Part shown: positions 27,091 to 39,502 of the stretch, piece by piece | Numbering within the stretch: position 1 is the first letter of the stretch | Layout: each line of letters starts with the position of its first letter | Assembly (NCBI RefSeq): GCF_000355905.1 | Contig: NZ_APLF01000007.1 | Coordinates: 1-64,000, forward strand | Source of the DNA: Psychroflexus gondwanensis ACAM 44 | GTDB taxonomy: Bacteria; Bacteroidota; Bacteroidia; Flavobacteriales; Flavobacteriaceae | DNA length: 64,000 nucleotides | Direction: 5' to 3' | The notes under the pieces: model-generated | Told to the model about the DNA's origin: nothing | Databases searched by the model: none | The model's input: the letters and a program-made list of their open reading frames with translations, nothing else | Made by a program: the position numbers and the translations under genes

Positions 27091-27327
27091 AAAAAGGATT
27101 CTTATACCAAATTAAATTTATAATGTCGTATACATAAATTGAATTATACTACGACGTAGCTCAGCACAAGTTTTTTGATTGATTGAAGTAAAAAATAATT
27201 AGCATAGCCTTAGTTACGGTAATTATTTTTGATAAAAAGCAGGCGAAAAAAGCCTGTGCCGAATTCGTATCGGTAAAACGATTTATTACGACATTATAGG
27301 TTTAATTTGGTATTATTACAAGAATCC
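27091..27327. terminator. 13-bp inverted repeat split by a MITE-like element (former bidirectional terminator)
   Basis: AAAAAGGATTCTT (27091-27103) and AAGAATCCTTTTT (about 27319-27331) are perfect inverted repeats. Without the 27105-27312 element they would form a hairpin with a loop of about seven bases and a T run on both strands, suiting the two convergent genes. The right arm is also the last codons (KGF/L) of the response-regulator gene. Confidence 0.55.
27105..27312. mobile_element. MITE-like non-coding element, 208 bp
   Basis: The ends are imperfect inverted repeats: TACCAAATTAAATTTATAAT on the left, and on the right the complement reading TACCAAATTAAACCTATAAT, each followed by GTCGTA. 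TTA flanks both sides (27102-27104 and 27313-27315), a possible 3-bp target duplication. It has no coding capacity and contains internal hairpins (for example AATAATTA... with TAATTATT, and GCAGGC with GCCTGTGC). A solo end of the same element occurs at 46076. Confidence 0.7.
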
Positions 27328-27984
27328 TTTTTCTTTTGCCTTTTCTACCAATATTTTATCGTTGGTGTTGGGAATATCAAAGAAAAATTTCATCTGCTTC
27401 TTTCGCTTTTCAATTGTGCTTAAGGAAAGATCCATGTGATCAGGAATATTTTTGGTAAGAATACCTTTAGAAATTAAATAAAGAATCCTTAGGTCTTCCT
27501 CATCGATATTGTGAGAAAACTCAATGGTCTTTTTCATCATTTTTTGGACGGTAGTACTATGGTAAGTTTGCCCCTTGAGTAAACTTTCTATAGCAGCAAT
27601 TAGGATATCTGGGTTGGTATCCGACTTGACAAGAAATCCATTGGGGTCTATCCGTCGCAGAACATTTAATACCTTATAGTTGTTTTCCAACATGGTACAG
27701 ATTAAAAGTTTGGCTTGTGGCTGACTTTTCTTGGCGAGTTTGGCCAAGTCCTCTCCAGAGTTATACTTGCCGTCCTTGCTCGCAGGCAGGGAAAGATCTA
27801 GACAGATAAGATCATATTTTTTATCTTCGTTTAAAATTTTTTTGGCGGCATCAGTACAATTTAAGGCTGAATCTTTAGAGAATTTTAGTGTGTCATCATG
27901 CTCCTTTATGATTTCTAAGGCTTGTTCAAAACCTGCAATTATCATTGGATGATCGTCAACAAGAAGGACATTATACTTAGGCAT
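27316..27984 (-). CDS. response regulator with LuxR-type DNA-binding domain
   Basis: 222 residues. The receiver domain occupies about 1-130: NVLLVDDHPMIIAGFEQ, the phospho-acceptor Asp63 in CLDLSLPA, and the Lys in LVKSD. The C-terminal helix-turn-helix domain (about 155-222; LRILYLISKGILTKNIPDHMDLSLSTIEKRKKQM) is NarL/FixJ-like but divergent. A cytoplasmic transcription factor paired with the histidine kinase gene 5 bp upstream. The gene ends at the edge of the MITE-like element, with its last codons in a split hairpin. Confidence 0.9.
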   Translation of the reverse strand: MPKYNVLLVDDHPMIIAGFEQALEIIKEHDDTLKFSKDSALNCTDAAKKILNEDKKYDLICLDLSLPASKDGKYNSGEDLAKLAKKSQPQAKLLICTMLENNYKVLNVLRRIDPNGFLVKSDTNPDILIAAIESLLKGQTYHSTTVQKMMKKTIEFSHNIDEEDLRILYLISKGILTKNIPDHMDLSLSTIEKRKKQMKFFFDIPNTNDKILVEKAKEKGFL

Positions 27985-27989
27985 AAGTT

Positions 27990-29990
27990 TTATTTCAGGG
28001 GAATAAAAATACTAATTTTAGTTCCAGTACCAAGCTTGGAATCAATACTTATTTTACCGTGGACTTCGTCGACTCTAGATTTTATATTCTTTAATCCAAT
28101 GCCCGGTTTTTTTTGATTATTGAAGCCTTTGCCGTCATCTTTAATGATGAGTTCAATTTCCTTTGCAGATTCATTTAAGCTGAATTTGATAAAGACAAAA
28201 CTGGCTTCGGCGTGTTTTTGAATATTCATGGTGGCCTCCTGAAGGATGCGGTAAGTATGCATTTTTACTACCGAAGCTATCAAGGACCAGTTCACAGAAT
28301 CATCTATTGTAAGCTGATGGCTTCTCTCTAGCTGTTGCTTTTGAATGAGATCTTGAATAAGATCTCCAAATTCTTTATGCTCATCAAAATAGGTGTTGGA
28401 TAATTCGTGAGATAAGCTCCTGATCTGGCGTTCTACATCCATCAAATTATCGGTGAGTTGACCAAACTTTGCATCACCTTTCATCCCCGTTTTATATTTG
28501 TAGAACATTAGATTCATCCGGTTGGCATAGAGCTCAGTAAGGATATTATCGTGAAGTTCTCTAGCGATGCGATCCCGTTCTTCTCGTTTACCCTCATCTT
28601 TTCTTGCACTCTGAAGAAGAAGAAGTTCGTATATTTTTTCATCCGCCACTTTTTGATCACGTTCAAGCTCAAGAGCTCTGTTTTTGGATCGCTGAACGTA
28701 AAATATAAAGACTGAACTTCCTAAGATAATGATGAGAGAGGTAATAAGAAAAATGATGGTACGTTCTTCTTCGAGCATTTCTGCACGTTGCTGGACCTCT
28801 TCCGTTTCAAAACGGATACGTTCAAATTTATTACGCACTTTTCTCTCTTCGACTTGAAGACTATCGCTAAGATCGATATAGGAAGTGGTAAAGGAGTAAC
28901 TAGTATTGGGTTGCAAGTCTGCTAAGAGTTGCCAAGAGGCTAAGAGGTCTCTATTGTTGTTATTGCTTTGTGCTGTGGAATTTGCTGAAAAAGCAAATTC
29001 CACAGCTTTTGTGGTGTTTCCTATAAATTGATAGTATTCAGCGATGTGAATCTGACTAATAGAAATACCAGCGAGATGTTTAATATTTTGCCTTATATCT
29101 AAAGCCCTTTGCATATCGGGAAGCACATTTTGAGTTTCTCCAGTTTCCAATCTATTAAAGGCCAGATTGTCTAAAGCCATTGCGTAAAGATAAGGATCTC
29201 TTTCGTAAAGGTTTTTGGTGGCTAAGGTCTTTCGATAGTTTTTGATAGCAAGCTCAAAGTTTTTTTGCTTTTCGTAAACATTACCTATATTATTAAAGGT
29301 CGCTGCTCTGTATAAGTCTTGATCTTCTACTTTACCAAAAGCTTGCAAAGCATTATTATGATAATTTAAAGCAACGTCAAAATTTCTGAGATTATAATTA
29401 GTTACACCTAAAAGACTATATGCTCTGTAAAGAAGTTTAAATGATTTTATTTGTTTGGAAACCTCAACAACCTTAATCAGATTCACTTCCGTCCCAGTAA
29501 AATCTTTAGCTTGACCTTGAATTAGTGCTAAATTATAGAGCATTTGAGCATAATTCTCTAAATCATTTTTTTGGTTGTAAAGGAATCCGGCTTGATTAAA
29601 TGCGTAATAAGCAAAATCAGTTTTATTTTCATTTAAATAACTATCACCAAGATTCCAATAAAATTTAGCTAATCGAGTAGTATCTTTATATTTGATAGCT
29701 TTTTCTCTAGCCAAATTATTTATTTCATAAAATAGTTTTGAATTAGAATTTAAAGCTCGAAAATCGAGCGCAACTAGATATTTAATTTGTAAGCTATCAT
29801 TTTTTATTTGTTGAACAAACTGAAATGTCTTATTTAAGCTTGCTTCTTTATTACTATTATTATCAAACTTACTTAAATAAGTCAAAATAGAATCCCTTAA
29901 TTGAGGATCAACATCAGAGCTTTTACTTGAAGGGGATTGACAACCATATATAAAAATTAATACGACAAGATAAACAATCGACTGCTTCAT
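27990..29990 (-). CDS. TPR-containing lipoprotein sensor histidine kinase
   Basis: 666 residues. The N-terminus ends in a lipobox-like YGC (Cys17), so the sensor part is probably lipid-anchored or periplasmic. TPR repeats fill about 30-370 (LYNLALIQGQAKDFTGTEVN, ATFNNIGNVYEKQKNFELAI). One transmembrane helix lies near 415-435, then a coiled coil. The HisKA_3 box is RDRIARELHDNILTELYANR with His480, and the HATPase shows the N box near ILQEATMNIQKHAEA and G boxes in IIKDDGKGFNNQKKPGIGLKNI. It phosphorylates the adjacent response regulator. A perfect 15-bp inverted repeat lies within the coding sequence at 28972-29006. Confidence 0.9.
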   Translation of the reverse strand: MKQSIVYLVVLIFIYGCQSPSSKSSDVDPQLRDSILTYLSKFDNNSNKEASLNKTFQFVQQIKNDSLQIKYLVALDFRALNSNSKLFYEINNLAREKAIKYKDTTRLAKFYWNLGDSYLNENKTDFAYYAFNQAGFLYNQKNDLENYAQMLYNLALIQGQAKDFTGTEVNLIKVVEVSKQIKSFKLLYRAYSLLGVTNYNLRNFDVALNYHNNALQAFGKVEDQDLYRAATFNNIGNVYEKQKNFELAIKNYRKTLATKNLYERDPYLYAMALDNLAFNRLETGETQNVLPDMQRALDIRQNIKHLAGISISQIHIAEYYQFIGNTTKAVEFAFSANSTAQSNNNNRDLLASWQLLADLQPNTSYSFTTSYIDLSDSLQVEERKVRNKFERIRFETEEVQQRAEMLEEERTIIFLITSLIIILGSSVFIFYVQRSKNRALELERDQKVADEKIYELLLLQSARKDEGKREERDRIARELHDNILTELYANRMNLMFYKYKTGMKGDAKFGQLTDNLMDVERQIRSLSHELSNTYFDEHKEFGDLIQDLIQKQQLERSHQLTIDDSVNWSLIASVVKMHTYRILQEATMNIQKHAEASFVFIKFSLNESAKEIELIIKDDGKGFNNQKKPGIGLKNIKSRVDEVHGKISIDSKLGTGTKISIFIPLK
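28972..29006. repeat. perfect 15-bp inverted repeat inside the kinase gene
   Basis: GCTGTGGAATTTGCT (28972-28986) and AGCAAATTCCACAGC (28992-29006) with a 5-nt loop lie inside codons of a TPR region. No T tract follows on the coding strand. Confidence 0.75.
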
Positions 29991-30033
29991 TAAAACTCTT
30001 CTAAAATCTTGTCTAAACTACTAAAATTAAAAT

Positions 30034-30213
30034 TTATAAATCATCTGGATCTTCGTGGGTGTTTTCTGCTCTATAAACTCTATTTTCTCCACCATTTCCA
30101 AAAATCTCTTCTGGAGTTTCTCCTTCGTATTGATCGTCGCTAAACGCTTCTGGTGAACATCCTGCAAAGAAAAATAAGCATACCATTGTGAAAATTCCGA
30201 TAATCTTTTTCAT
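30034..30213 (-). CDS. 59-residue lipoprotein of unknown function
   Basis: From the ATG at 30213 (MKKIIGIFTMVCLFFFAGC) a lipoprotein signal peptide ends at Cys19. Only 40 mature residues follow, acidic with Asp/Glu/Asn/Gly (SPEAFSDDQYEGETPEEIFG, later ENTHEDPDDL), without a domain. It lies 43 bp upstream of the histidine kinase gene on the same strand and has its own -7 element, so it may be co-transcribed with the two-component pair. It could be a signalling peptide, a surface epitope, or a degraded lipoprotein. Function inferred only from position. Confidence 0.6.
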   Translation of the reverse strand: MKKIIGIFTMVCLFFFAGCSPEAFSDDQYEGETPEEIFGNGGENRVYRAENTHEDPDDL

Positions 30214-30254
30214 AACTCTAAGTTTTAAAATTAATGTTTGTGTTTTTGTTTCTA

Positions 30255-30262
30255 CAAATGTA
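30255..30262 (-). promoter_or_regulatory. TAnnTTTG -7 element for the small lipoprotein
   Basis: The minus strand reads TACATTTG 41 bp upstream of the ATG at 30213. It could drive the lipoprotein, kinase and regulator genes as one transcript. Confidence 0.5.
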
Positions 30263-30283
30263 AGTGACATAAAAACATTTGAA

Positions 30284-30322
30284 TTACGGTTTGACCGTAC
30301 ACTTGTTACGGTTAAACCGTAA
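30284..30322. repeat. pair of palindromes at the cassette start, copy A
   Basis: TTACGGTTTGACCGTA (30284-30299) and TTACGGTTAAACCGTAA (30306-30322) are adjacent near-palindromes with an ACGGTT core, as in copy B at 37267-37305. They could be operators or cassette ends. Confidence 0.65.
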
Positions 30323-30496
30323 TTTCCAATTATATCTCTCGGAGGCCTTGTTATTGCTGGGATGCAAATATGTTAAATTTTTTATATTTATACATTTTGG
30401 GTTATTTTTTCTATTTTTAAGCCTTAAATCTTAGTTTTTCAATGAAAAATAAGGTCTAAGAACTCAACATACTAACAGATTTTAAAAGCCTTAAAG

Positions 30497-30528
30497 CGTT
30501 TGTAAACGGCTACAACCGTTTGTAAACG
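30497..30528. repeat. tandem CGTTTGTAAACG repeats, copy A
   Basis: Two identical 12-mers CGTTTGTAAACG lie at 30497-30508 and 30517-30528, exactly 20 bp apart (about two helical turns), each itself near-palindromic. This suggests a dimeric protein binding site on one face of the DNA in the ssb leader. Confidence 0.65.
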
Positions 30529-30663
30529 CAAGTAAAAGGAAGTACTGGATAACTGTCAATTAAAAGCAACTCGTGCTCTCATCTTTGCCCTGTCGATAGG
30601 AAACACCATCGATTTGGTTTAGAGAGACTAAGCCATTTTAAAAAACCATTTAATTTTATAGTT

Positions 30664-31164
30664 ATGAGTACTTTAAAAAATTCAGTACAGTTAATGGGCC
30701 ACAATACCAATTCTGTTTTAAAATGATCCATAAAGAAACTGATGATTTTTTTCTTTTAACGATACATAAAATTAAGGCATAGCATTGGCTATGGCTTCAT
30801 TTTATGTGGAAGTAAAAAGGATAAAAGGGCAGTTTATTTGGTTTATTTTGATGTAGAATTGGTATCAAGCCAAGATCCAGAAGTTGTCAACCTTGACTCT
30901 GGGAAGAAACTCGTTAAATTCTCCATCGCTACCAACGAGTATTATCACGACACTAGCGGCGAGAAAGTCACTAACACCTACTGGCATAATATCATCGCCT
31001 GGGGCAAGACCGCTAGCTTTATAGAAACCTATGTCAAAAAAGGACAAGAGGTTCTATTAAAAGGGAAACTCGCTCCCCGCTCCTACGAAACCAAAGACGG
31101 TGAAAAACGCTACATCACAGAAATCAATTGTTCTGAGATTGTGACGACCTCACAGAAGGTGTAG
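30664..31164 (+). pseudogene. ssb: ssb copy A, disrupted by a MITE-like insertion
   Basis: The ATG at 30664 begins MSTLKNSVQLMGH exactly as intact copy B, then runs into the inserted element and stops (NTNSVLK). Past the element, the frame resumes from QDPEVVNLDSGKKLVKFSIA and is intact to the stop at 31164 (KLAPRSYETKDGEK, TTSQKV). A TTG at 30838 in the element end could restart translation and give a 108-residue protein whose first strand is replaced by VYFDVELVSS, so residual function is conceivable. Six bases beside the junction differ from copy B by three transitions (TTAGGT versus TCAAGC). Confidence 0.85.
30703..30866. mobile_element. MITE-like element inside ssb copy A
   Basis: About 162 bp, absent from copy B. 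Terminal inverted repeats begin ATACCAATTCT on both ends (30704-30714 and the complement of 30855-30865). An internal fold pairs CATAAAAT..GGCATAG with CTATGGC..ATTTTATG. No coding capacity. The TACCAA terminus is shared with the element at 27105. A clear target duplication is not preserved. Confidence 0.75.
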
Positions 31165-31231
31165 AATTATTGGTGGTTTGATAAAGAATATTTATAAAAA
31201 TCGCTTAAGCTCTGCTTTATTCCTTACCACA

Positions 31232-31263
31232 ACATAGCCCACGGTTTAAACCGTGGGCTATGT
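31232..31263. repeat. perfect 32-bp palindrome, copy A
   Basis: ACATAGCCCACGGTTT and its exact complement are joined with no loop, 68 bp after the ssb stop. An identical palindrome is at 38053-38084. As RNA it could act as a terminator; as DNA it could be a REP-like or recombination site. Confidence 0.8.
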
Positions 31264-31303
31264 GTTATTAACAATAGAATTTAAAAGATTTTCAACATAT
31301 CCG

Positions 31304-31480
31304 TTACAGTTTATAAATCACCTTACACATCACAATCCTAGGCTGAATAAATAGTCTTCAGTCCGAGACTATGAATTCATTAACAGAATTCTGCCTTTTA
31401 AATTCAATATCAAACAAGTTAGTGGCGTTTAACTCAAATCCCCAGGCTGAATCTTCAAAATTAATTTTTATAAAATAGAG
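31304..31480 (-). pseudogene. C-terminal remnant of an outer-membrane beta-barrel protein
   Basis: The minus strand reads FEDSAWGFELNATNLFDIEF, continues KRQNSVNEFIVSD, hits an internal stop, then RLFIQPRIVMCKVIYKL and a terminal stop at 31304-31306. This lines up with the end of the intact barrel gene beside it (LSGKNLFNTERFRSFSISD ... RFVLLKMEYRF). It is the tail of a second, dead paralogue, lying about 12 bp downstream of the intact gene. Confidence 0.65.
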
Positions 31481-31491
31481 ATGAATATAAA

Positions 31492-34155
31492 TCAAAATCT
31501 ATATTCCATTTTCAATAAAACAAACCTTGGTAAAAGTCTATATTCAGTTGTTGAGAAACCTATATCACTGATTGAAAAACTTCTAAACCGTTCCGTATTG
31601 AAGAGGTTTTTTCCTGAGAGTCCTAAAGTTAATTTGTTTTCAATCAATTTATAACGCGCATCAAAATCTAAAAAATAATAGGTATTATCGGTTTCCAAAT
31701 TTCCAAAATAATAAAGTTCGGATTGCATTTGAACATCAAACTTATCGTTGAACACAACCGATAAATCTAAAAAACTCACATTATTCGTAAATGAATTATC
31801 TATGGTGGTTTTAATCTGGCTCGTCGTCCATTTTGTTCCCACATGATAATTAAAAGCACCTCGGAATCCCGAACGCAATTCTAATCCATAATTGTAATTG
31901 TTTGAGGTGACCTCTCTTAAACCAGTGCTGTTTACAATGTTCTTAAATTCACTTTTGGTATACCCTAAATCCAGCTTCAAGTTTGATGAGATGGACTTAA
32001 AATAAAAATCTAAATCTGAATTAATACTTATAAACTCACGGTCTTTGATCAGTATTTTTTCAGATTGAGCAAAGTTTTGTTGAAGTTGTGTGTTGGTTGA
32101 AAAGAAATCGTGGTTTTTATTATATATGATAAATGTATTTGCAAAAAAACGGTCGCTCCAGTTACCCAATTGATAATTGAACACAAGACTTGACGCATCA
32201 AGTTGATTGAAATCGCCTGTTCCTTTAGTGAACGAACGAAAGCCTGTCATTACAAAATCATCAAACACATCCAACACTCCAGCATTAGTAGTAGTATAAG
32301 AATATGAAGTCATCAACTTGTTTTTACCATTTATTTTCCAATCCATACCTAAACTCGGATTGATAAAAAATGGACTTTGATGATCTGATAAATTGTTATT
32401 TTCTAACCGATTGAAAAGTTGATGTGCGTCCAATTTGGCTGTAAAACCAAAATCCTTGATTTTGAAGAGGTATTTACTTTTGAAGTACAAATCATTCACT
32501 TGGTATTTGGTTTGATTTTGATAGCCTGTGGGTTGATCGATTATAGAATTGTCTTCCAACACTGAAAATGTCGTAAATAACTTATCTTCCCTAAACTCAT
32601 TACCCAGCTGCAATTCTAATAAATTACCCTTATCTCTTCTGTCAAGTAAATGTGCATTAATACCTGCAAATTTCATCTGGCTGTTACTCTGCTGCGAAAC
32701 ATTATTTGCATTATCGGAAGCAGGAAATAAATCATCATAAAAGAACTCATTGAAGCTGTAACTTTGTGGTGATTCTTCGTCGATAAACCGCCCAGTCAAC
32801 AAGAATACTTTTTTGTCATCAAACTTAGTGCTGTAACTTATTTTTTGGTCAAAAAGCGTGTTTTGATGTTGAAGGTTCTCTAGTGTAGAGTTTCCATTAA
32901 AAACAAGATTGGAGACATCATCAAAATCTCCATTATTATATTTGGTAGTGGCTTCAAGCATTTTAGTTTTTGAAAAATTGTAGATAAAATCAAGTTTTCC
33001 GAAAGCAATTCTCTTTTTATTTTGAAGCTGATAATCTTCAGTATTGGTAAAACTAGCTCCACTCACGTCTACAAAATCAGTAGAATTCCTAAAAAAGTCG
33101 GTTTCGTCCCAATTGAAAAACCCAAGTGTTTTTATTTTTAGTTTTTCAGTTGGGTTAAAAATCGCGTTGAGTGAAACCAATTCAGCATTATTGAAATTGG
33201 TCCTGCTTTTTTTAAAATTTAGCTGAGGTGGTGATAAACTTAAAAGTGTATTTACACTTTGACCGTCACCAATACTAGCCGGCTCATTTATTCTAAAAGG
33301 ACGTATTAAATCTTGGATATCACCTGTGGCATTGTATCCTATGCTATTGAGATTTGTTAGAAAATAGTATTTATTCTTTTTACCAAAGTTCATCAAATTG
33401 CCCTTCAATTGATAAAAACTGTCATTACCAATACTGGTTTCTATATTACCAAACCAAATGCGTTTGGATTTCTCATCCAGTTTTAAGTTTAGAGCCACTT
33501 TATTACTTTCTTCCACCCCTTTTAACAGTCGGTTATTTGAGTAGTTCTTTAAAACTTCAACTTCCTCGATGGGATAAGCAGGCATATTTTTAGACAGAAT
33601 TTTATAACCTTTCTCAAAAAGGTCATCCCCATCCACCATCAATTTTTCAATTTCTTGATTCCCCACCTTTATCGTGCCTTCGCTATCTATTTGTAAACCT
33701 GGTATCCTTCGTAATAAATCTTCTACTGTCTGCTCGGTACCATCAGTGAAATATTTGGTTTTAAAATTTATAGTATCATTACTTATAGAAATTGGGGACT
33801 CGGCCTGTATAATGACTTCATCTAAATCCATAGGTTTCTCTTTTAAAACCACATCAATTTTAAGGTTCTTTTGTTCTGAATTCAGAACCAATGGAACGGT
33901 TTTAGCCTCATAACCAAGTGAAGAAACTACTAAATAGAATCTCCCAGTCTTATTTGTTTTTAATTGATAAATACCCTCATCATCTGTGTATGTGTAAGCT
34001 ATTATGGATTTTGATAAGCTATCTTTTAGAATAACAGTTGCTGAGGAAATAGGGTTTAGAGAATCACTAACAGAACCAGATATATTTACTTGGCCAAAAC
34101 ATATAGATGAATAAACAAAAACAATTATTAATCTAATATTTTTCAAGAGAATCAT
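31492..34155 (-). CDS. outer-membrane beta-barrel protein with carboxypeptidase-regulatory-like N-terminal domain (TonB-receptor-like)
   Basis: 887 residues from the ATG at 34155 (MILLKNIRLIIVFVYSSICFG signal peptide); a longer frame adds 14 unlikely residues. A CarboxypepD_reg-like/CNA-B domain follows (VNISGSVSDSLNPISSATVI, about 22-100), then a plug-like segment (ILRRIPGLQIDSEGTIKVGNQ) and a long barrel ending in aromatic RFVLLKMEYRF. The family lies beside GLPGLI genes in Bacteroidota. It may import or export a peptide or ligand through the outer membrane; no substrate is evident. The start overlaps the stop of the GLPGLI gene by 23 bp, showing tight coupling. Confidence 0.85.
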   Translation of the reverse strand: MILLKNIRLIIVFVYSSICFGQVNISGSVSDSLNPISSATVILKDSLSKSIIAYTYTDDEGIYQLKTNKTGRFYLVVSSLGYEAKTVPLVLNSEQKNLKIDVVLKEKPMDLDEVIIQAESPISISNDTINFKTKYFTDGTEQTVEDLLRRIPGLQIDSEGTIKVGNQEIEKLMVDGDDLFEKGYKILSKNMPAYPIEEVEVLKNYSNNRLLKGVEESNKVALNLKLDEKSKRIWFGNIETSIGNDSFYQLKGNLMNFGKKNKYYFLTNLNSIGYNATGDIQDLIRPFRINEPASIGDGQSVNTLLSLSPPQLNFKKSRTNFNNAELVSLNAIFNPTEKLKIKTLGFFNWDETDFFRNSTDFVDVSGASFTNTEDYQLQNKKRIAFGKLDFIYNFSKTKMLEATTKYNNGDFDDVSNLVFNGNSTLENLQHQNTLFDQKISYSTKFDDKKVFLLTGRFIDEESPQSYSFNEFFYDDLFPASDNANNVSQQSNSQMKFAGINAHLLDRRDKGNLLELQLGNEFREDKLFTTFSVLEDNSIIDQPTGYQNQTKYQVNDLYFKSKYLFKIKDFGFTAKLDAHQLFNRLENNNLSDHQSPFFINPSLGMDWKINGKNKLMTSYSYTTTNAGVLDVFDDFVMTGFRSFTKGTGDFNQLDASSLVFNYQLGNWSDRFFANTFIIYNKNHDFFSTNTQLQQNFAQSEKILIKDREFISINSDLDFYFKSISSNLKLDLGYTKSEFKNIVNSTGLREVTSNNYNYGLELRSGFRGAFNYHVGTKWTTSQIKTTIDNSFTNNVSFLDLSVVFNDKFDVQMQSELYYFGNLETDNTYYFLDFDARYKLIENKLTLGLSGKNLFNTERFRSFSISDIGFSTTEYRLLPRFVLLKMEYRF

Positions 34156-34915
34156 TACATTCTTCACAATTAGAACTAAGTTTTGGAGTTGACACACCTC
34201 TTGGAAGTTGCTGTTTGACTCTATTTAAAATGATCTGATTTTTATTATCAATAAATTCTTTCAATTCATCAATAGTAAGTATCTCTTTTTCATTCTCAAA
34301 AAGTAAATTTATCTTATTTATAAGAGCATTATACAAAGTATCTGTGCTTGCGTCGATAGATTTAATTTTTAAAGCATTTAATTTGAACTCACTATTACTA
34401 TCTCTTGCTTCTAATATTAAACCATCTAATCCATTTAATTTCCAAGGTCCAAAAGTTGTTGGTATTTGATTTGTATACCATACGAAAAATTTTCTTCCTC
34501 TAAATTCTTTTGTTGCAAGTTTACATTCATAATTAGCAATGTATTTTGTACTATCAATCATTTGCCAATTGTTTTTAAAAACATCTTCCTTGATTTCTAA
34601 TGCTTGTCCAAAAAAAGTTTCTAAAAAATAAAATCCATCTCTTTTATTAACGTAAACATTAGAATTCATTTTATTCCCTAATTCTAAATTGTAAGTTTTT
34701 TGATTATATACGTTCCCCTCATTTTTATTTCCAGATTTGCTTTCCCGTTCAATATAGATTGATAATGAGTCGGTCAAAACAAGGTCATATTTTTTATACA
34801 AATTGATAGATGAGTTTTGAAAACTTTGCTCGTAGTTTATTTCGATTGTTTGCGAGTAGATTACAAGAACTTTTAAGAAAAATAAACAAAAAAAATACTG
34901 TTTAATTCCAATCAT
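34133..34915 (-). CDS. GLPGLI family protein (first of three, barrel-coupled)
   Basis: 260 residues with a signal peptide (IKQYFFCLFFLKVLVIYSQ). The family signature reads GPWKLNGLDGLILEARD, with Asp in place of the usual Pro of GLPGLI. RGRKFFVWYTNQIPTTFGPW precedes it, as in the family. Near the C-terminus is RVKQQLPRGVSTP and a CEEC pair. Exported, probably periplasmic. GLPGLI proteins have no established activity. The gene overlaps the barrel gene by 23 bp and follows two further GLPGLI genes with a 117-bp gap. Confidence 0.85.
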   Translation of the reverse strand: MIGIKQYFFCLFFLKVLVIYSQTIEINYEQSFQNSSINLYKKYDLVLTDSLSIYIERESKSGNKNEGNVYNQKTYNLELGNKMNSNVYVNKRDGFYFLETFFGQALEIKEDVFKNNWQMIDSTKYIANYECKLATKEFRGRKFFVWYTNQIPTTFGPWKLNGLDGLILEARDSNSEFKLNALKIKSIDASTDTLYNALINKINLLFENEKEILTIDELKEFIDNKNQIILNRVKQQLPRGVSTPKLSSNCEECNDSLEKY

Positions 34916-35032
34916 AATATTATTTTTTAGTGAAATAGTTATTAATAAAGTAAATATCTATTTCGTAATTTTATAACGTTAATAAATATGAAAATCTTAA
35001 AAAAGATAAAGCTTATAATGTTTTACCGAAAT

Positions 35033-35830
35033 TTAATCTTCTTTTGTTTCTTTTTCCCATTCATAAATTTTTTCTATGCTGACTCTTTCAGTATTATTCA
35101 ATTTTATGGAACCTCCTCTTGAAACCCTGGTTTTCATTGTTTGATCCATCTGTTTCAATTTGTTTTCAAATTTTTCTACAATGCTTCTATAAGTTACAAT
35201 TGGTGAGTTATATGATTCTGATAAAAACTTCAAATCAATATCTTGTTTGAATGGAATAATAATTTTGCTTGCCTTCCAATGGTATTGTAATCCATTATCA
35301 TCATTGTAAACTTCCATTATGAGTCCAGGAAGTCCTTTAAATTTAAAGGGACCGAAGACTATTGGAATTTCAGGTGTATAGTAGGCTATAATTTCAGAAC
35401 CTCTAAATGTCCCTTCAGCTTTATAACACTTAAAAGTATTTAATATTTTAGATTCATTAGTATTTAATTTCCAAGATATATCAGGCAAACTATCGATAGC
35501 TACAATGGTATTCTGTATATTTTTAGGTTGACTAACAAAATACATAGTTGGCGAATCCGATTTTGTATAATACTTCATCGCATTAATTTTTATCTCTGCA
35601 GGATTAATGGAGTATTGATTATCTCCTTCTTTTTTTATAATTTCATTATTAGTTATCTCTACTATTTCAGTTGTATAAAGAGCATTGTTTGCGTCAGCTA
35701 TAAGATACTCAACAGTATTTATTGAACCTTTCATTACAGCATATTCAACATAAATTTTTAATGTTTTATTTTGACCGCTAAAAGCATTAACTGAAAAAAT
35801 TATAATTAATAAACAGAATATATATTTCAT
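35033..35830 (-). CDS. GLPGLI family protein (second of three)
   Basis: 265 residues with signal peptide MKYIFCLLIIIFSVNAFSG. The core motif is FGPFKFKGLPGLIMEVYND, preceded by FRGSEIIAYYTPEIPIVFGP, and the C-terminal TRVSRGGSIKLNN and EKIYEWEKETKED. The end closely matches that of the next paralogue, and the 3' flank of about 60 bp is also shared, so the pair seems to be a recent tandem duplication. Exported; function unknown. Confidence 0.88.
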   Translation of the reverse strand: MKYIFCLLIIIFSVNAFSGQNKTLKIYVEYAVMKGSINTVEYLIADANNALYTTEIVEITNNEIIKKEGDNQYSINPAEIKINAMKYYTKSDSPTMYFVSQPKNIQNTIVAIDSLPDISWKLNTNESKILNTFKCYKAEGTFRGSEIIAYYTPEIPIVFGPFKFKGLPGLIMEVYNDDNGLQYHWKASKIIIPFKQDIDLKFLSESYNSPIVTYRSIVEKFENKLKQMDQTMKTRVSRGGSIKLNNTERVSIEKIYEWEKETKED

Positions 35831-35887
35831 TGTTATGAATTAATAAATATGAAGATCTTAAAAAAGATAAAACTTATAATGTTTTAT

Positions 35888-36643
35888 TTAATTTTCTTTT
35901 GTTTCTTCTTCCCATTCAAATTTTATTTCAAAACCTGTTCTAAAAGATTTTTGGCTAACAACTTTTGCACCTCTTGGTAATCTAGTCAATGTTTTCGGGT
36001 CTAATCCTTTACCATTAAATTTTAAGTCAGCATATTCTCTAATGGATATTATTTCTTGATTATTATACTTCAAATCTTTAGAATTAAAGTCATAAGATGT
36101 AGATTTCACTTGCTGTAGAAACCAATTATATCTTTTGGTTTCGTCGTATATTTCGTAAATAAGACCTGGTAAACCTTGAAATTTCCAAGGGCCTGCTTTT
36201 ATTGCAGTATCTGTTGAATACCAAGCAATATAATTTCTCCCTCTAAAGTAGCATGTAGCCTTATTAAGTCTGATATCATTAATTATTTTACTTTCTTCTA
36301 AAAGTTTCCATTTAAAATCAGGTATTTTTTCTTTGATAAGTTTGCTCTCTTTTAAAATGTCATCTTTCGTTGTCAATATGTCATTTTCGTAATCGAAAAA
36401 ATTGTATCCTTTCTCTCCAGAACTCAACCTAACAGTTATATCAACTTCATAATCTTCATTTTCTTCTGTATTGCCGATTTTCTCGGTAATATATACTGTT
36501 TTTTTTTGATTGCTACTTACATATAAATATCCGTTTTTTGTAGTTGGTAGTTCAGTATTATACAAAACTTTGTAGGTGATTAAAACTGATTTTTCTTGAG
36601 AAAATGTAATAAGTGGTAATAGTAAAAAGAATATGTTTTTCAT
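35888..36643 (-). CDS. GLPGLI family protein (third of three)
   Basis: 251 residues with signal peptide MKNIFFLLLPLITFSQ. The motif is GPWKFQGLPGLIYEIYDE, preceded by FRGRNYIAWYSTDTAIKAGP; the C-terminus reads LTRLPRGAKVVSQKSF, then FEWEEETKEN. It sits at the upstream end of the GLPGLI/barrel cluster, 73 bp after the small secreted protein. The coding sequence is AT-rich by eye compared with the housekeeping genes. Exported; activity unknown. Confidence 0.88.
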   Translation of the reverse strand: MKNIFFLLLPLITFSQEKSVLITYKVLYNTELPTTKNGYLYVSSNQKKTVYITEKIGNTEENEDYEVDITVRLSSGEKGYNFFDYENDILTTKDDILKESKLIKEKIPDFKWKLLEESKIINDIRLNKATCYFRGRNYIAWYSTDTAIKAGPWKFQGLPGLIYEIYDETKRYNWFLQQVKSTSYDFNSKDLKYNNQEIISIREYADLKFNGKGLDPKTLTRLPRGAKVVSQKSFRTGFEIKFEWEEETKEN

Positions 36644-36716
36644 CTTATTTTATTTAATGTGAATAAAAAACTGCGACTATTAAATTGAACTTTGTAGTCG
36701 CAGTTAGGGTTTGAAA

Positions 36717-37016
36717 TTAGCCTAAACTATCAGCAATTTCATTACATTCTTCGGCAGAATCTACATCTTCAACTACAATAGTAAATTGAAGCAAAAGATT
36801 ACCATCGCCATCATATGCACCAACAGTTATGTAACAAGTATCAAAAACCTCTAAATTATTTTCAATTTTTAGAGTATTACTAAAATCATTTGATCTTAAT
36901 GATTCAGCTAATTCAATTGCTTCATCATAATTGTCAGTTGGTACTCCTATTGCATTATTGGCAAAAGCAAACGTTACTACTAGCATAAAAGCTAAGGTAA
37001 ATAAAACATTTTTCAT
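36717..37016 (-). CDS. small secreted protein of unknown function
   Basis: 99 residues with signal peptide MKNVLFTLAFMLVVTFAFA. The mature 80 residues include YDEAIELAESLRSNDFSNTL and CYITVGAYDGDGNLLLQFTI; two Cys residues (in DTCY and EECN) could form a disulfide. No domain recognised. It is the first gene of the minus-strand GLPGLI cluster, so its expression is probably linked to it. It might be the cargo or substrate of the GLPGLI/barrel pair, but this is only inferred from position. Confidence 0.65.
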   Translation of the reverse strand: MKNVLFTLAFMLVVTFAFANNAIGVPTDNYDEAIELAESLRSNDFSNTLKIENNLEVFDTCYITVGAYDGDGNLLLQFTIVVEDVDSAEECNEIADSLG

Positions 37017-37074
37017 GATTAAAATTTTTAAATAATTAATTTTTGGCAGTTTAGACTCATACCGGAATATCTAT

Positions 37075-37093
37075 ACTTCTTAACTTAAGAAGT
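37075..37093. repeat. perfect 9-bp inverted repeat, possible operator
   Basis: ACTTCTTAA and TTAAGAAGT flank a single C, between the small secreted protein gene and the candidate sRNA promoter. It could be a dimeric regulator site. Confidence 0.45.
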
Positions 37094-37114
37094 GACACAT
37101 CTCATTAAAAATTA

Positions 37115-37122
37115 TACATTTG
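37115..37122 (+). promoter_or_regulatory. TAnnTTTG -7 element before the candidate sRNA
   Basis: TACATTTG on the plus strand, with no coding gene following for 500 bp. It would start RNA near 37128. Confidence 0.45.
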
Positions 37123-37125
37123 CAA

Positions 37126-37197
37126 TCCACAGTGAAGCGTATGTTTTCATGCCTTTACGGGAGAAGCTTCTACCTAGTAGGAGCTTTCTCTTTTTAA
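37126..37197 (+). ncRNA. candidate small RNA with intrinsic terminator
   Basis: A -7 element at 37115 is followed by an about 65-nt stretch with a first possible hairpin (GCGTATG with CATGC) and a second one, GAGAAGCTTCTAC (37161-37173) with GTAGGAGCTTTCTC (37177-37190), then TTTTT. The second stem is imperfect but has a T tract on the plus strand, so it looks like a terminator. The 61-codon frame across it starts before the promoter end and looks non-coding. No known RNA family recognised. Confidence 0.35.
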
Positions 37198-37266
37198 ATT
37201 CTATTCTTTATTTTATTGGCACTATTTTAATTTATTATAAATATAGTATTAAGATATCTTTTTGGA

Positions 37267-37305
37267 TTACGGTTTGACCGTACACTTGTTACGGTTAAAT
37301 CGTAA
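37267..37305. repeat. pair of palindromes at the cassette start, copy B
   Basis: TTACGGTTTGACCGTA (37267-37282) and TTACGGTTAAATCGTAA (37289-37305). The second has one change from copy A (ACCG to ATCG), so copy A retains the better palindrome. Confidence 0.65.
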
Positions 37306-37373
37306 TTTTCAATTATATCTCTCGAAAGCCTAGTTATTGCTAGAATGTGAATATATTAAAGTTATTATATTTA

Positions 37374-37381
37374 TACATTTG
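37374..37381 (+). promoter_or_regulatory. TAnnTTTG -7 element of ssb copy B
   Basis: TACATTTG here; copy A reads TACATTTTG at 30391-30399, an insertion of one T. The ATG lies about 265 bp downstream, so the leader is long and structured. Confidence 0.5.
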
Positions 37382-37478
37382 GGGTTGTTTTTCTCTTTTT
37401 AAGCCTTAAATCTTAATTTTTCACTGAAAAATAAGGTCTAAAAACTCAACATACTAACAGATTTTAAAAGCCTTGAAG

Positions 37479-37510
37479 CGTTTGTAAACGACTACAACCG
37501 TTTGTAAACG
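37479..37510. repeat. tandem CGTTTGTAAACG repeats, copy B
   Basis: 12-mers at 37479-37490 and 37499-37510, spaced 20 bp as in copy A. Confidence 0.65.
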
Positions 37511-37646
37511 CAAGTAAAAGGAAGTAACTGGATATCTGTCAATTAAAGGGAATTCGTGCTCTCATCTTTGCCCTGTCGATAGGAAACACCATCGATGTGG
37601 TTTAGAAAGACTAAGCCATTTTAAAAAACCATTTAATTTTATAGTT

Positions 37647-37985
37647 ATGAGTACTTTAAAAAATTCAGTACAGTTAATGGGCCACTTAGGTCAAGATCCA
37701 GAAGTTATCAACCTTGACTCTGGGAAGAAACTCGTTAAATTCTCTATCGCTACCAACGAGTATTATCACGACAGTAGCGGCGAGAAAGTCACTAACACCT
37801 ACTGGCATAATATCATCGCCTGGGGCAAGACCGCTAGCTTTATAGAAACCTATGTCAAAAAAGGACAAGAGGTTCTATTAAAAGGGAAACTCGCTCCCCG
37901 CTCCTACGAAACCAAAGACGGTGAAAAACGCTACATAACAGAAATCAATTGTTCTGAGATTGTGACGACCTCACAGAAGGTGTAG
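37647..37985 (+). CDS. ssb: single-stranded DNA-binding protein, short accessory form (copy B)
   Basis: 112 residues, OB-fold only. The start LKNSVQLMGHLGQDPEVINL, FSIATNEYYHD, TYWHNIIAWGKTASFIETYV and KLAPRSYETKDGEKRYITE are the SSB landmarks. The acidic C-terminal tail of full-length SSB is missing, as in short accessory SSBs of Bacteroidota. It binds single-stranded DNA; whether it serves replication or a mobile element is unknown. The gene belongs to a duplicated cassette with a long structured leader and 3' palindrome. Confidence 0.9.
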   Translation: MSTLKNSVQLMGHLGQDPEVINLDSGKKLVKFSIATNEYYHDSSGEKVTNTYWHNIIAWGKTASFIETYVKKGQEVLLKGKLAPRSYETKDGEKRYITEINCSEIVTTSQKV

Positions 37986-38052
37986 AATTATTGGTGGTTT
38001 GATAAAGAATATTTATAAAAATCGCTTAAATGACACTTTATTCCTTGCCACA

Positions 38053-38084
38053 ACATAGCCCACGGTTTAAACCGTGGGCTATGT
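38053..38084. repeat. perfect 32-bp palindrome, copy B
   Basis: Same sequence as 31232-31263, half-site ACATAGCCCACGGTTT. It lies about 67 bp after the ssb stop. Confidence 0.8.
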
Positions 38085-38142
38085 GTTATTAACTACCTAA
38101 TGGTTTTAACCATTTATATAATCTATCTCACAATTTGTTTTA

Positions 38143-38238
38143 ACCGCTCCCCAGTCCTACGAAACCAAAGACGGTGAAAAACGCTACATCACAGAAATCA
38201 ATTGTTCTGAGATGGTTACGACCTCTCAGAAAGCTTAA
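38143..38238 (+). pseudogene. ssb: C-terminal remnant of a third ssb copy
   Basis: The plus strand reads APQSYETKDGEKRYITEINC and SEMVTTSQKA before a stop at 38236-38238, matching the last 31 residues of ssb with small changes (Q for R, M for I, A for V). The rest is missing. It lies 58 bp after the palindrome of copy B. Confidence 0.75.
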
Positions 38239-38256
38239 GCTCGGCTTTATAATTTG

Positions 38257-38292
38257 AAAACCCTCATTGTTTTGAATAAACAGGGAGGTTTT
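38257..38292. terminator. weak inverted repeat after the ssb remnant
   Basis: AAAACCCTC (38257-38265) and GGGAGGTTTT (38283-38292) pair with one bulge and a G-T pair. It could end transcription from both sides. Confidence 0.35.
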
Positions 38293-38308
38293 GATTAATA
38301 TATTTTAA

Positions 38309-38506
38309 TCAGGCCTTTACGGGTTTGTAAAAATACCCAAGAATCAGAACCAATAGGACGAAAACAGAGGTTAAAAAGCCTTGTAAATCTTTTAGTATGA
38401 TGCTACCCTCAAAAATGGATTCCCAGTCTAATGCTATTCCGTAAGCAATAGATGTCACTATGACGACAAGTATCAAGCCTATGTGAAGATTTCTATTTAG
38501 AGACAT
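38309..38506 (-). CDS. small integral membrane protein
   Basis: 65 residues with two membrane helices (about 8-26 and 44-60) separated by an acidic loop (DWESIFEGS). No domain recognised. It is the last gene of the minus-strand run from serS, 48 bp after the hydroxyacid dehydrogenase gene. Function unknown. Confidence 0.65.
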   Translation of the reverse strand: MSLNRNLHIGLILVVIVTSIAYGIALDWESIFEGSIILKDLQGFLTSVFVLLVLILGYFYKPVKA

Positions 38507-38554
38507 CGCTTATGCTTTTTATAGTTGAATAAGTTAACTTTTTACTAAAGATAC

Positions 38555-39502
38555 TCAATCTACTTTAAAATCCAAGTGGATTTTATCGACTATAGTTTGA
38601 GCGAGTTTAATGTGGCTTTCAAAAGTCCAGCCGGCAACATGTGGACTCAATACTACATTTGGAGCATCTATAAGAAATCGAAATGCCCTAGGGATATCTT
38701 TCTCTTTTGAAAACAAATCTTCAAAAGACGTTTTTTCATATTCCAAGACATCTAATCCTGCTCCAAGAATTTTCCCTGACTTAAGTCCATCAACTAGATC
38801 TTCTGTCACCACACTTTTACCCCTCGCCGTATTGATCAACCAAAAGGGTTTTGACATGGACTCTATAAACTTTGCATCGACCATGCCTAAAGTTTTTAGT
38901 GTTTGCGGAGTATGCAAACTGATGACCTCTGCTTTAGCTTTTAATTCCTTCAAGCTCACTTGCTTGGCATTGGCATCGCCAAGGTTTTCTAAAATATCGT
39001 AACACAAGACTTCAACCTCAAATCCGCTCAATTTCTTAGCAAAGGCTTTTCCTGTATTTCCGTAACCGATGATGCCTAGCGTTTTACCTTCCAACTCATG
39101 TCCTCTATTTTCCTCACGCCGCCACTGGCCGTTTACCACTTCATCGTGTGCTGTACGCAACTTATTGAACAAAGAAAGCAGCATGCCGAGTGCGTGTTCA
39201 GAAACGGCATTGCGGTTGCCTTCTGGTGCGTTATAGAGTTGTATTCCTTTTTTCTGTGCATAATCGACGTCTATATTTTCTAACCCAGCGCCTACCCGAC
39301 CTATAAATTTAAGACGAGTGGCATGATCCAAAAAGGCTTTGTCAATTTTAAAACGACTCCGGATGATGACTCCATCATAGTGGTGGATTTTGGCTTCAAC
39401 TTCAGCTTTTGTACTCGTAAAATCTTCAGTGTTGTCGAAACCCAATGTGGTTAATTCCTTGATCATTAAAGGGTGATTACTGTCCAGATGTAGTATTTTC
39501 AT
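38555..39502 (-). CDS. D-2-hydroxyacid dehydrogenase family protein
   Basis: 315 residues, a two-domain NAD-dependent dehydrogenase. Catalytic-domain start MKILHLDSNHPLMIKEL, the NAD loop LGIIGYGNTGKAFAKKL, the Arg site in LINTARGKSVV, Glu in GLDVLEYEKT and His in SPHVAGWTFES. It resembles D-3-phosphoglycerate dehydrogenase without the ACT domain, but other 2-hydroxyacids are possible. Cytoplasmic. It lies in the minus-strand run after the thioesterase gene. Confidence 0.88.
   Translation of the reverse strand: MKILHLDSNHPLMIKELTTLGFDNTEDFTSTKAEVEAKIHHYDGVIIRSRFKIDKAFLDHATRLKFIGRVGAGLENIDVDYAQKKGIQLYNAPEGNRNAVSEHALGMLLSLFNKLRTAHDEVVNGQWRREENRGHELEGKTLGIIGYGNTGKAFAKKLSGFEVEVLCYDILENLGDANAKQVSLKELKAKAEVISLHTPQTLKTLGMVDAKFIESMSKPFWLINTARGKSVVTEDLVDGLKSGKILGAGLDVLEYEKTSFEDLFSKEKDIPRAFRFLIDAPNVVLSPHVAGWTFESHIKLAQTIVDKIHLDFKVD

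What the first reader, a model, noticed from the sequence alone, without database searches (positions are those of the whole stretch)
30283..38097. Duplicated ssb cassette flanks a 6-kb GLPGLI/barrel island
Two direct copies of an about 830-bp unit (30283-31272 and 37266-38097) flank a small secreted protein, three GLPGLI proteins, an outer-membrane barrel and a barrel remnant. The copies begin and end at the same points and carry ACGGTTT-cored palindromes at both ends. The repeats could allow the island to amplify or leave as a circle, or the cassette itself may be mobile. Seen: repeats and boundaries. Inferred: mobility and role of SSB.
Basis: partly seen in the sequence, partly recalled or inferred. 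Interest (0 to 1): 0.75.

Follow-up and report, generated by a model that had tools for sequence, protein, structure and literature searches.

The report
Duplicated promoter-ssb cassette flanking surface genes
Two copies of a DNA block, holding a small single-strand-binding-protein gene and a promoter that looks controlled by the neighbouring sensor-regulator pair, flank a set of surface-protein genes in a Psychroflexus bacterium, and comparison with relatives suggests that such blocks are multiplied and their surface-gene cargo exchanged by recombination.

Summary
The repeats are real. Copies A (30283-31272) and B (37266-38097) are one unit of about 830 bp; a 162-bp palindromic insert breaks ssb in A, and a third ssb 3' remnant lies at 38145-38231. 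The genus is Psychroflexus. The two end palindromes differ in kind. The right one is REP-like. The left one (PAL, two 17-bp palindromes 22 bp apart) is a promoter element: a -7-like box lies exactly 21 bp from it, on one side only, in 61 of 75 sites, and away from ssb at 14 of 14 ssb cassettes. PAL occurs in the same 10 of 27 genus genomes as close orthologs of the adjacent response regulator; in other genera a similar pair lies beside that regulator's gene, before a conserved small RNA not found in Rfam. So A probably drives the HK-RR operon and B the GLPGLI/barrel operon. In this genome and eight relatives the locus holds 1-3 ssb copies and different cargo; P. longus has no island; a related ssb-GLPGLI-barrel set sits elsewhere in two species. 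Compared with its sister genome, a different island occupies this place, beside a scar of the sister's barrel. Exchange by recombination is supported; circles, a recombinase at PAL, RR binding and any role of SSB are not shown.

The parts
27316..27984 (-). response regulator (RR), NarL/RcsB-like
   Evidence: Pfam Response_reg 34.6 bits, no GerE match at E 0.01; NCBIfam RcsB/NarL/MctR similarity far below their cut-offs
27990..29990 (-). sensor histidine kinase (HK), TPR + HisKA_3 + HATPase
   Evidence: Pfam
30034..30213 (-). 59-aa lipoprotein-like gene, first gene of the HK-RR operon
   Evidence: conserved at this place in eight relatives, tandem copies in P. sediminis and P. aurantiacus
30255..30262 (-). 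-7-like box TACATTTG, 21 bp from PAL A, pointing to lipoprotein-HK-RR
30284..30322 (.). PAL A, dual palindrome, left end of copy A
30664..30702 (+). 5' part of broken ssb, copy A
30704..30865 (.). 162-bp element interrupting ssb A, imperfect inverted repeat; no other copy found in this genome
30871..31164 (+). 3' part of broken ssb, copy A
31232..31263 (.). REP-like palindrome, right end of copy A
31307..31456 (-). scar: last 50 codons of a barrel 92% identical to the one at this place in G025
31457..38274 (.). segment without counterpart in G025 at this locus apart from its ssb-cassette part; G025 has a different island here
31492..34197 (-). 901-aa ORF, CarboxypepD_reg, inferred outer-membrane barrel
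34133..34915 (-). GLPGLI protein c
35033..35830 (-). GLPGLI protein b
35888..36643 (-). GLPGLI protein a
36717..37016 (-). 99-aa small secreted-type protein, first gene of the island operon
   Evidence: no Pfam or NCBIfam match
37011..37231 (-). 5' leader region shared with other PAL-linked genes
37238..37245 (-). -7-like box TATATTTA, 21 bp from PAL B, pointing to the island
37267..37305 (.). PAL B, dual palindrome, left end of copy B
37647..37985 (+). intact 112-aa SSB, copy B, without acidic C-terminal tip
38053..38084 (.). REP-like palindrome, right end of copy B
38145..38231 (+). third ssb 3' remnant
38309..38506 (-). 65-aa ORF (orf65), part of the duplicated unit in P. tropicus
38555..39502 (-). 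serA-like gene (name from memory), right border of the variable locus
   Evidence: synteny

Best explanation
The cassette is a short, stand-alone ssb gene placed back to back with an operator-promoter (PAL) of the neighbouring two-component system. The response regulator binds the two palindromes of PAL and activates a promoter whose -7 box lies 21 bp away, pointing away from ssb. Copy A drives lipoprotein-HK-RR (autoregulation); copy B puts the small secreted protein, three GLPGLI proteins and the barrel under the same regulator. The interval between HK-RR and serA is a recombination hot spot: the ssb-PAL block is duplicated again and again, and the near-identical blocks let cargo be gained, exchanged or lost by homologous recombination. 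In this lineage the present island stands where the sister genome has another, next to a scar of the sister's barrel. Shown: repeats, promoter geometry, association of PAL with the RR gene, alternative states, scar. Inferred: that this RR binds PAL, that homologous recombination is the agent, and the order of events.
For: Box at exactly 21 bp on one side only in 61 of 75 PAL sites, both sides 0, other offsets about 2 on average and 8 at most; away from ssb at 14 of 14 cassettes with PAL at up to 3 mismatches. PAL and close RR orthologs (70% identity or more) in the same 10 of 27 genus genomes. Outside the genus 8 of 10 genomes with PAL at up to 1 mismatch have it within 100 bp of the RR ortholog; of 32 RR loci not chosen for PAL, 24 have the pair at 6 or fewer of 24 mismatches and 27 the box at offset 21, against 0 of 2000 control windows for the pair. 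Cargo and ssb copy number vary at the locus; P. tropicus repeats include orf65, as after tandem duplication; ssb copies group by species; related islands at a second locus; scar and breakpoints against G025.
Against: The 10 PAL-bearing genomes may be one clade, so co-occurrence could be ancestry. 14 of 75 sites lack the box at 21. In other genera PAL lies 3' of RR before a small RNA, not in front of HK-RR. Homology between copies stops within a few bases of PAL in three genomes, which a recombination site would also give. The pair of this genome has support 0.95 in the joined tree but 0.27 (leader) and 0.76 (ssb 3' part) alone; gene conversion would give the same grouping. The ectopic P. montanilacus PAL is degenerate (5 mismatches). 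No binding, expression or read data.
Confidence: 0.68

Rival explanations
1. PAL is a site-specific recombination site: a recombinase inserts or excises [ssb + cargo] units between directly repeated PALs, like an integron cassette or a circle.
For: Homology between copies ends within a few bases of PAL in this genome, P. montanilacus and P. tropicus copies 1-2; units differ in cargo between PALs; PAL is dispersed in the genome.
Against: Fixed promoter geometry at 61 of 75 sites and at RR loci of other genera; P. tropicus copies 2 and 3 share about 26 bp beyond PAL; no recombinase was noted among the ORFs read at the locus, though none was searched for by profile.
Confidence: 0.12
2. The cassette is a REP-bounded element moved in trans by a Y1 (RAYT-like) transposase.
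For: The right-end palindrome resembles two palindromes 65 and 163 bp from a Y1_Tnp match on C16, and five Y1_Tnp matches lie in the genome, four over the cut-off.
Against: A strict REP pattern is found at the cassette in this genome and G025 only, not at nine other ssb loci with duplications among them, nor in the three RAYT loci scanned with the same strict pattern; the left end is not a REP.
Confidence: 0.05
3. Ordinary tandem duplication and drift: repeats and cargo differences are chance, with no selected exchange.
For: Six tandem OMP genes (P. montanilacus) and four tandem lipoprotein copies (P. sediminis) at the same locus; ssb neighbours differ between genera.
Against: Copies arose or were homogenised in several lineages at one place; an ssb-cargo set of the same kind is at a second locus; each cassette's promoter points to secreted or envelope-type genes.
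Confidence: 0.15

Closest known systems
NarL/RcsB-type two-component regulons
   Same: HK with HisKA_3 and RR of the NarL/RcsB kind; dual-palindrome site at fixed distance from promoters
   Different: all NCBIfam matches are far below cut-off; no binding data; targets are GLPGLI, lipoprotein and OMP genes
P. gingivalis FimS (NF053520)
   Same: TPR region of HK matches at 72.7 bits
   Different: cut-off is 600 bits, so not a member
Flavobacterium psychrophilum small RNA Rfp18 and other Rfp RNAs (PMC9723704, passages seen)
   Same: conserved flavobacterial small RNA; Rfp18 affects secreted metalloprotease mRNAs
   Different: Rfp18 is described as having a third stem-loop; the RNA beside the RR has two predicted hairpins. 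Identity with any Rfp RNA was not tested
REP/RAYT systems
   Same: right-end palindrome resembles ones near a Y1_Tnp match
   Different: REP absent (strict pattern) from the other duplicated cassettes
Variable surface-protein loci changed by recombination between repeats (general kind, recalled)
   Same: near-identical repeats flank exchangeable envelope cargo
   Different: the repeat carries ssb and a regulator-type promoter

Membership tests
Response-regulator operator/regulon | repeated site at fixed distance from promoters | tested here: met
   61 of 75 sites with the box at offset 21
Response-regulator operator/regulon | co-occurrence and linkage with the regulator gene | tested here: met
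   same 10 of 27 genomes (ancestry not excluded); 8 of 10 outside the genus
Response-regulator operator/regulon | binding by the RR | not testable with these tools
   needs EMSA, footprint or DAP-seq
REP/RAYT element | REP palindromes at both ends of the mobile unit | tested here: not met
   left end is PAL; strict REP only in this genome and G025 of 11 ssb loci
Integron-like or site-specific unit | recombinase gene and recombination at PAL | tested here: inconclusive
   boundaries near PAL; no profile search for recombinases at the locus, no reads
Homologous-recombination hot spot | alternative cargo and copy number between flanking repeats in relatives | tested here: met
   this genome and eight relatives
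SSB family (PF00436) | OB-fold SSB domain | tested here: met
   101.6 bits against cut-off 26
SSB family (PF00436) | acidic C-terminal tip of housekeeping SSB (feature recalled) | tested here: not met
   copy B ends TTSQKV; the genome's other SSB (C1) ends in an acidic run, read by eye
GLPGLI family (TIGR01200/PF09697) | curated model over cut-off | tested here: met
   Pfam 3 of 3, NCBIfam 2 of 2 sent

The most novel reading that the evidence does not exclude
The ssb-PAL block is a combined promoter and homology joint: cargo that arrives beside it comes at once under the envelope-type two-component system and can be swapped by recombination between ssb copies, so that the HK-serA interval works as an exchangeable expression site for surface proteins. 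The regulator, which in other Flavobacteriaceae appears to control a conserved small RNA beside its gene, has lost that RNA in this genus and been rewired to secreted cargo.
Probability: 0.33. Interest if true: 0.8.

Novelty: new variant of a known kind. Interest (0 to 1): 0.62.

Why it matters
GLPGLI proteins are common in Bacteroidota and of unknown function (recalled); three papers in the searched library mention them. This ties a set of them to a regulator, a defined promoter element and a shared leader, which makes them testable. It also offers a candidate binding site for a two-component system with close matches in 95 of 397 family genomes (E 1e-50 or better), and a conserved small RNA beside its gene that gave no Rfam match (five loci searched). 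The locus is a natural case of promoter duplication with cargo exchange.

Tried and rejected
Rfam over 29000-39000 gave only matches below gathering score (best STnc150, 35.7 of 60 bits, E 1e-4), taken as chance. Transposition by REP/RAYT was the first idea and was dropped. SSB as partner of the cargo: among 66 loci of other genera the commonest neighbour family (within four genes) was in 23, so no constant partner was found. The small RNA was sought in the 27 genus genomes with model R1: best score 40 bits (G017), like the weakest of three hits in L256 (40.2 bits); 19 of 27 genomes had some hit at E up to 1; the six best, read by eye, lack the CCCUC loop. Leader structure: RNAalifold on 18 sequences (A2) kept 4 pairs and the window's leader folds no better than shuffles (z -0.44), though a first hairpin appears in single folds of nine copies: structure is suggested, not shown. 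The insert in ssb A: no other copy in this genome; one 39-bp match among held loci. Downstream genes of PAL were picked with a crude signal-peptide filter without a control, so no count of secreted targets is claimed. Paper searches: GLPGLI 3 papers; Psychroflexus with SSB 9; Flavobacterium sRNA terms 1; Rfp18 6 (one relevant); P. torquis genome 4; Bacteroidetes RR/sRNA/palindromic, at least 5 of 6 terms, 90 (12 listed). None of the listings described this system; passages of three papers were seen, no paper was read whole.

Full report
Observation. The window is the start of contig C7 of a 3.31-Mb genome in Psychroflexus (named close relatives). Two direct copies of one unit lie at 30278-31272 and 37261-38097, 93% identical in the leader and 97% in ssb plus right end. 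Copy A is longer because a 162-bp element (30704-30865) interrupts its ssb; copy B encodes an intact 112-aa SSB. A third ssb 3' end lies at 38145-38231. Between the copies lie a 99-aa secreted-type protein, three GLPGLI proteins and a 901-aa ORF with CarboxypepD_reg domains, plus a barrel scar.

The end palindromes differ. The right one has matches elsewhere in this genome, two of them 65 and 163 bp from a Y1_Tnp match on C16. A strict form of it was found at the cassettes of this genome and G025 only, among 11 ssb-bearing loci scanned; the strict form was also not found in the three Y1_Tnp loci scanned, where only imperfect matches lie. The left one, PAL, is a pair of palindromes TTACGG-N5-CCGTAA with centres 22 bp apart. 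With up to 3 mismatches it occurs 80 times in 10 of 27 genus genomes; the reversed pattern occurs in none.

PAL has fixed promoter geometry. I held 75 of the 80 sites; five of P. tropicus were not listed by the tool. A box TAnnTTTG with at least 5 of 6 matches lies exactly 21 bp from PAL on exactly one side in 61 of 75, on both sides in none, on neither in 14; the other offsets from 5 to 65 have about 2 such boxes on average and 8 at most. TAnnTTTG as a flavobacterial -7 box is recalled. At the 14 ssb cassettes with PAL the box points away from ssb in 14 of 14. In the window PAL A points to lipoprotein-HK-RR and PAL B to the island. In 10 of 10 PAL-bearing genomes a boxed PAL also has a DUF4837-like motif within 1.5 kb downstream (Pfam was run for this genome's copy only).

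The regulator. RR orthologs of 70% identity or more are in 10 of 27 genus genomes, the same 10 as PAL; five more have hits of 34-36%. These 10 may be one clade. More independent support comes from other genera. Of 397 family genomes 13 had PAL at up to 1 mismatch; three are of this genus; of the other ten, eight have PAL within 100 bp of the RR ortholog (for G425 the RR was seen in the locus). Of the 95 genomes with an RR match at E 1e-50, I read 36, plus G425, 37 loci in all; five of the 37 had been chosen because they have PAL. Of the other 32, 24 have the pair at 6 or fewer mismatches of 24, 26 at 7 or fewer, and 27 have the box at offset 21 (24 of them perfect); 0 of 2000 control windows reach 7.

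What follows PAL elsewhere. In those genera PAL and box precede a small RNA gene of about 100 nt, 3' of RR: a UCAACA/UGUUGA stem with an AAUUAAUUAAUCCCUC loop and a terminator hairpin. It was recognised at 35 of 37 loci: 34 by pattern, L258 by model; not at L237 and L270. In 32 of these 34 sequences (two were left out of the alignment) 9 of 16 predicted pairs show compensatory change, all nine in the terminator hairpin; the first stem hardly varies. Rfam gave no match near threshold on five loci. In the genus no convincing copy was found. In G217, another genus, PAL precedes a 67-aa protein and a GLPGLI protein.

Shared leader. The 5' region of about 220 nt after PAL is similar between different cargo genes. 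A profile built from eight such leaders matched 15 of 150 flanks of the 75 sites at E 0.01, the eight included; at least two of the 15 are not on a boxed side. Related leaders lie in GLPGLI loci of G009 and G012, in which no PAL was found.

Locus history. The interval between HK-RR and serA was read in this genome and eight relatives. ssb copies: this genome 2 plus remnant, G025 1, P. tropicus 3, P. montanilacus 2 plus a 55-bp remnant, P. aurantiacus 1 plus a weak 57-bp match, P. curvus, P. longus, P. lacisalsi and P. sediminis 1 each. Cargo differs; in P. longus ssb stands next to serA with none. In P. aestuariivivens PAL precedes lipoprotein-HK-RR and the ssb match is on another contig. In P. 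tropicus two repeats of about 1 kb include orf65, as a tandem duplication would give. In the joined tree ssb copies group by species (support 0.95 here, 0.99 in P. tropicus); for this genome's pair the leader alone gives 0.27 and the ssb 3' part alone 0.76. Repeated duplication or gene conversion would both fit.

A second locus. P. montanilacus (L343) and P. longus (L344) have ssb beside small secreted, GLPGLI and barrel genes at another place; the barrels match the window's at E 0. In P. longus PAL is there with 1 mismatch; in P. montanilacus only a degenerate PAL (5 mismatches) with a box at 21. Between these two species the island and right flank are 92.5% identical, the ssb part 92.5%, the left flank 80%, which suggests exchange between species. 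The ectopic P. montanilacus cassette is 95% identical to the second copy and 90% to the first copy of its HK locus. Whether other genomes have this second site empty was not searched.

Difference from the sister genome. Against G025, homology runs to 31456, inside the C-terminus of G025's barrel, and resumes at 38275. The direction of change is inferred.

Limits. Not shown: RR binding, expression, circles, recombinases, the function of the tail-less SSB, and whether P. longus lost an island or never had one.

Noticed in passing
L235:1106-1210 and matching places in L236-L274: Conserved small RNA gene of about 100 nt 3' of the RR gene in 35 of 37 loci of other Flavobacteriaceae genera, no Rfam match on five loci searched.
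   Followed up: partly
L256:4370-5038: Three hits of the small-RNA model in tandem (58, 40 and 45 bits) in G158.
   Followed up: no
window 37011-37231; L339, L085, L185, L344, L203, L206: Leader of about 220 nt shared by unrelated PAL-linked genes and by GLPGLI loci in two genomes without PAL.
   Followed up: partly
L085:7756-8608: Four tandem copies of the 59-aa lipoprotein gene before HK-RR in P. sediminis.
   Followed up: no
L079:5897-9177: Six tandem outer-membrane-protein-like genes between two ssb cassettes in P. montanilacus.
   Followed up: no
window 30510-30545 and 37480-37515: Repeated CGTTTGTAAACG motif, two copies 20 bp apart, in the ssb leader; could be a second regulator site.
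   Followed up: no
L068 and PAL sites of nine other genomes: PAL with box lies upstream of a DUF4837-like lipoprotein gene (with a DUF4304 gene in this genome) in 10 of 10 PAL-bearing genomes.
   Followed up: partly
L040/L041/L060 (G000 contig C3): GLPGLI cluster with repeated 90-aa barrel N-terminal fragments ending about 70 bp before PAL-like palindromes.
   Followed up: no
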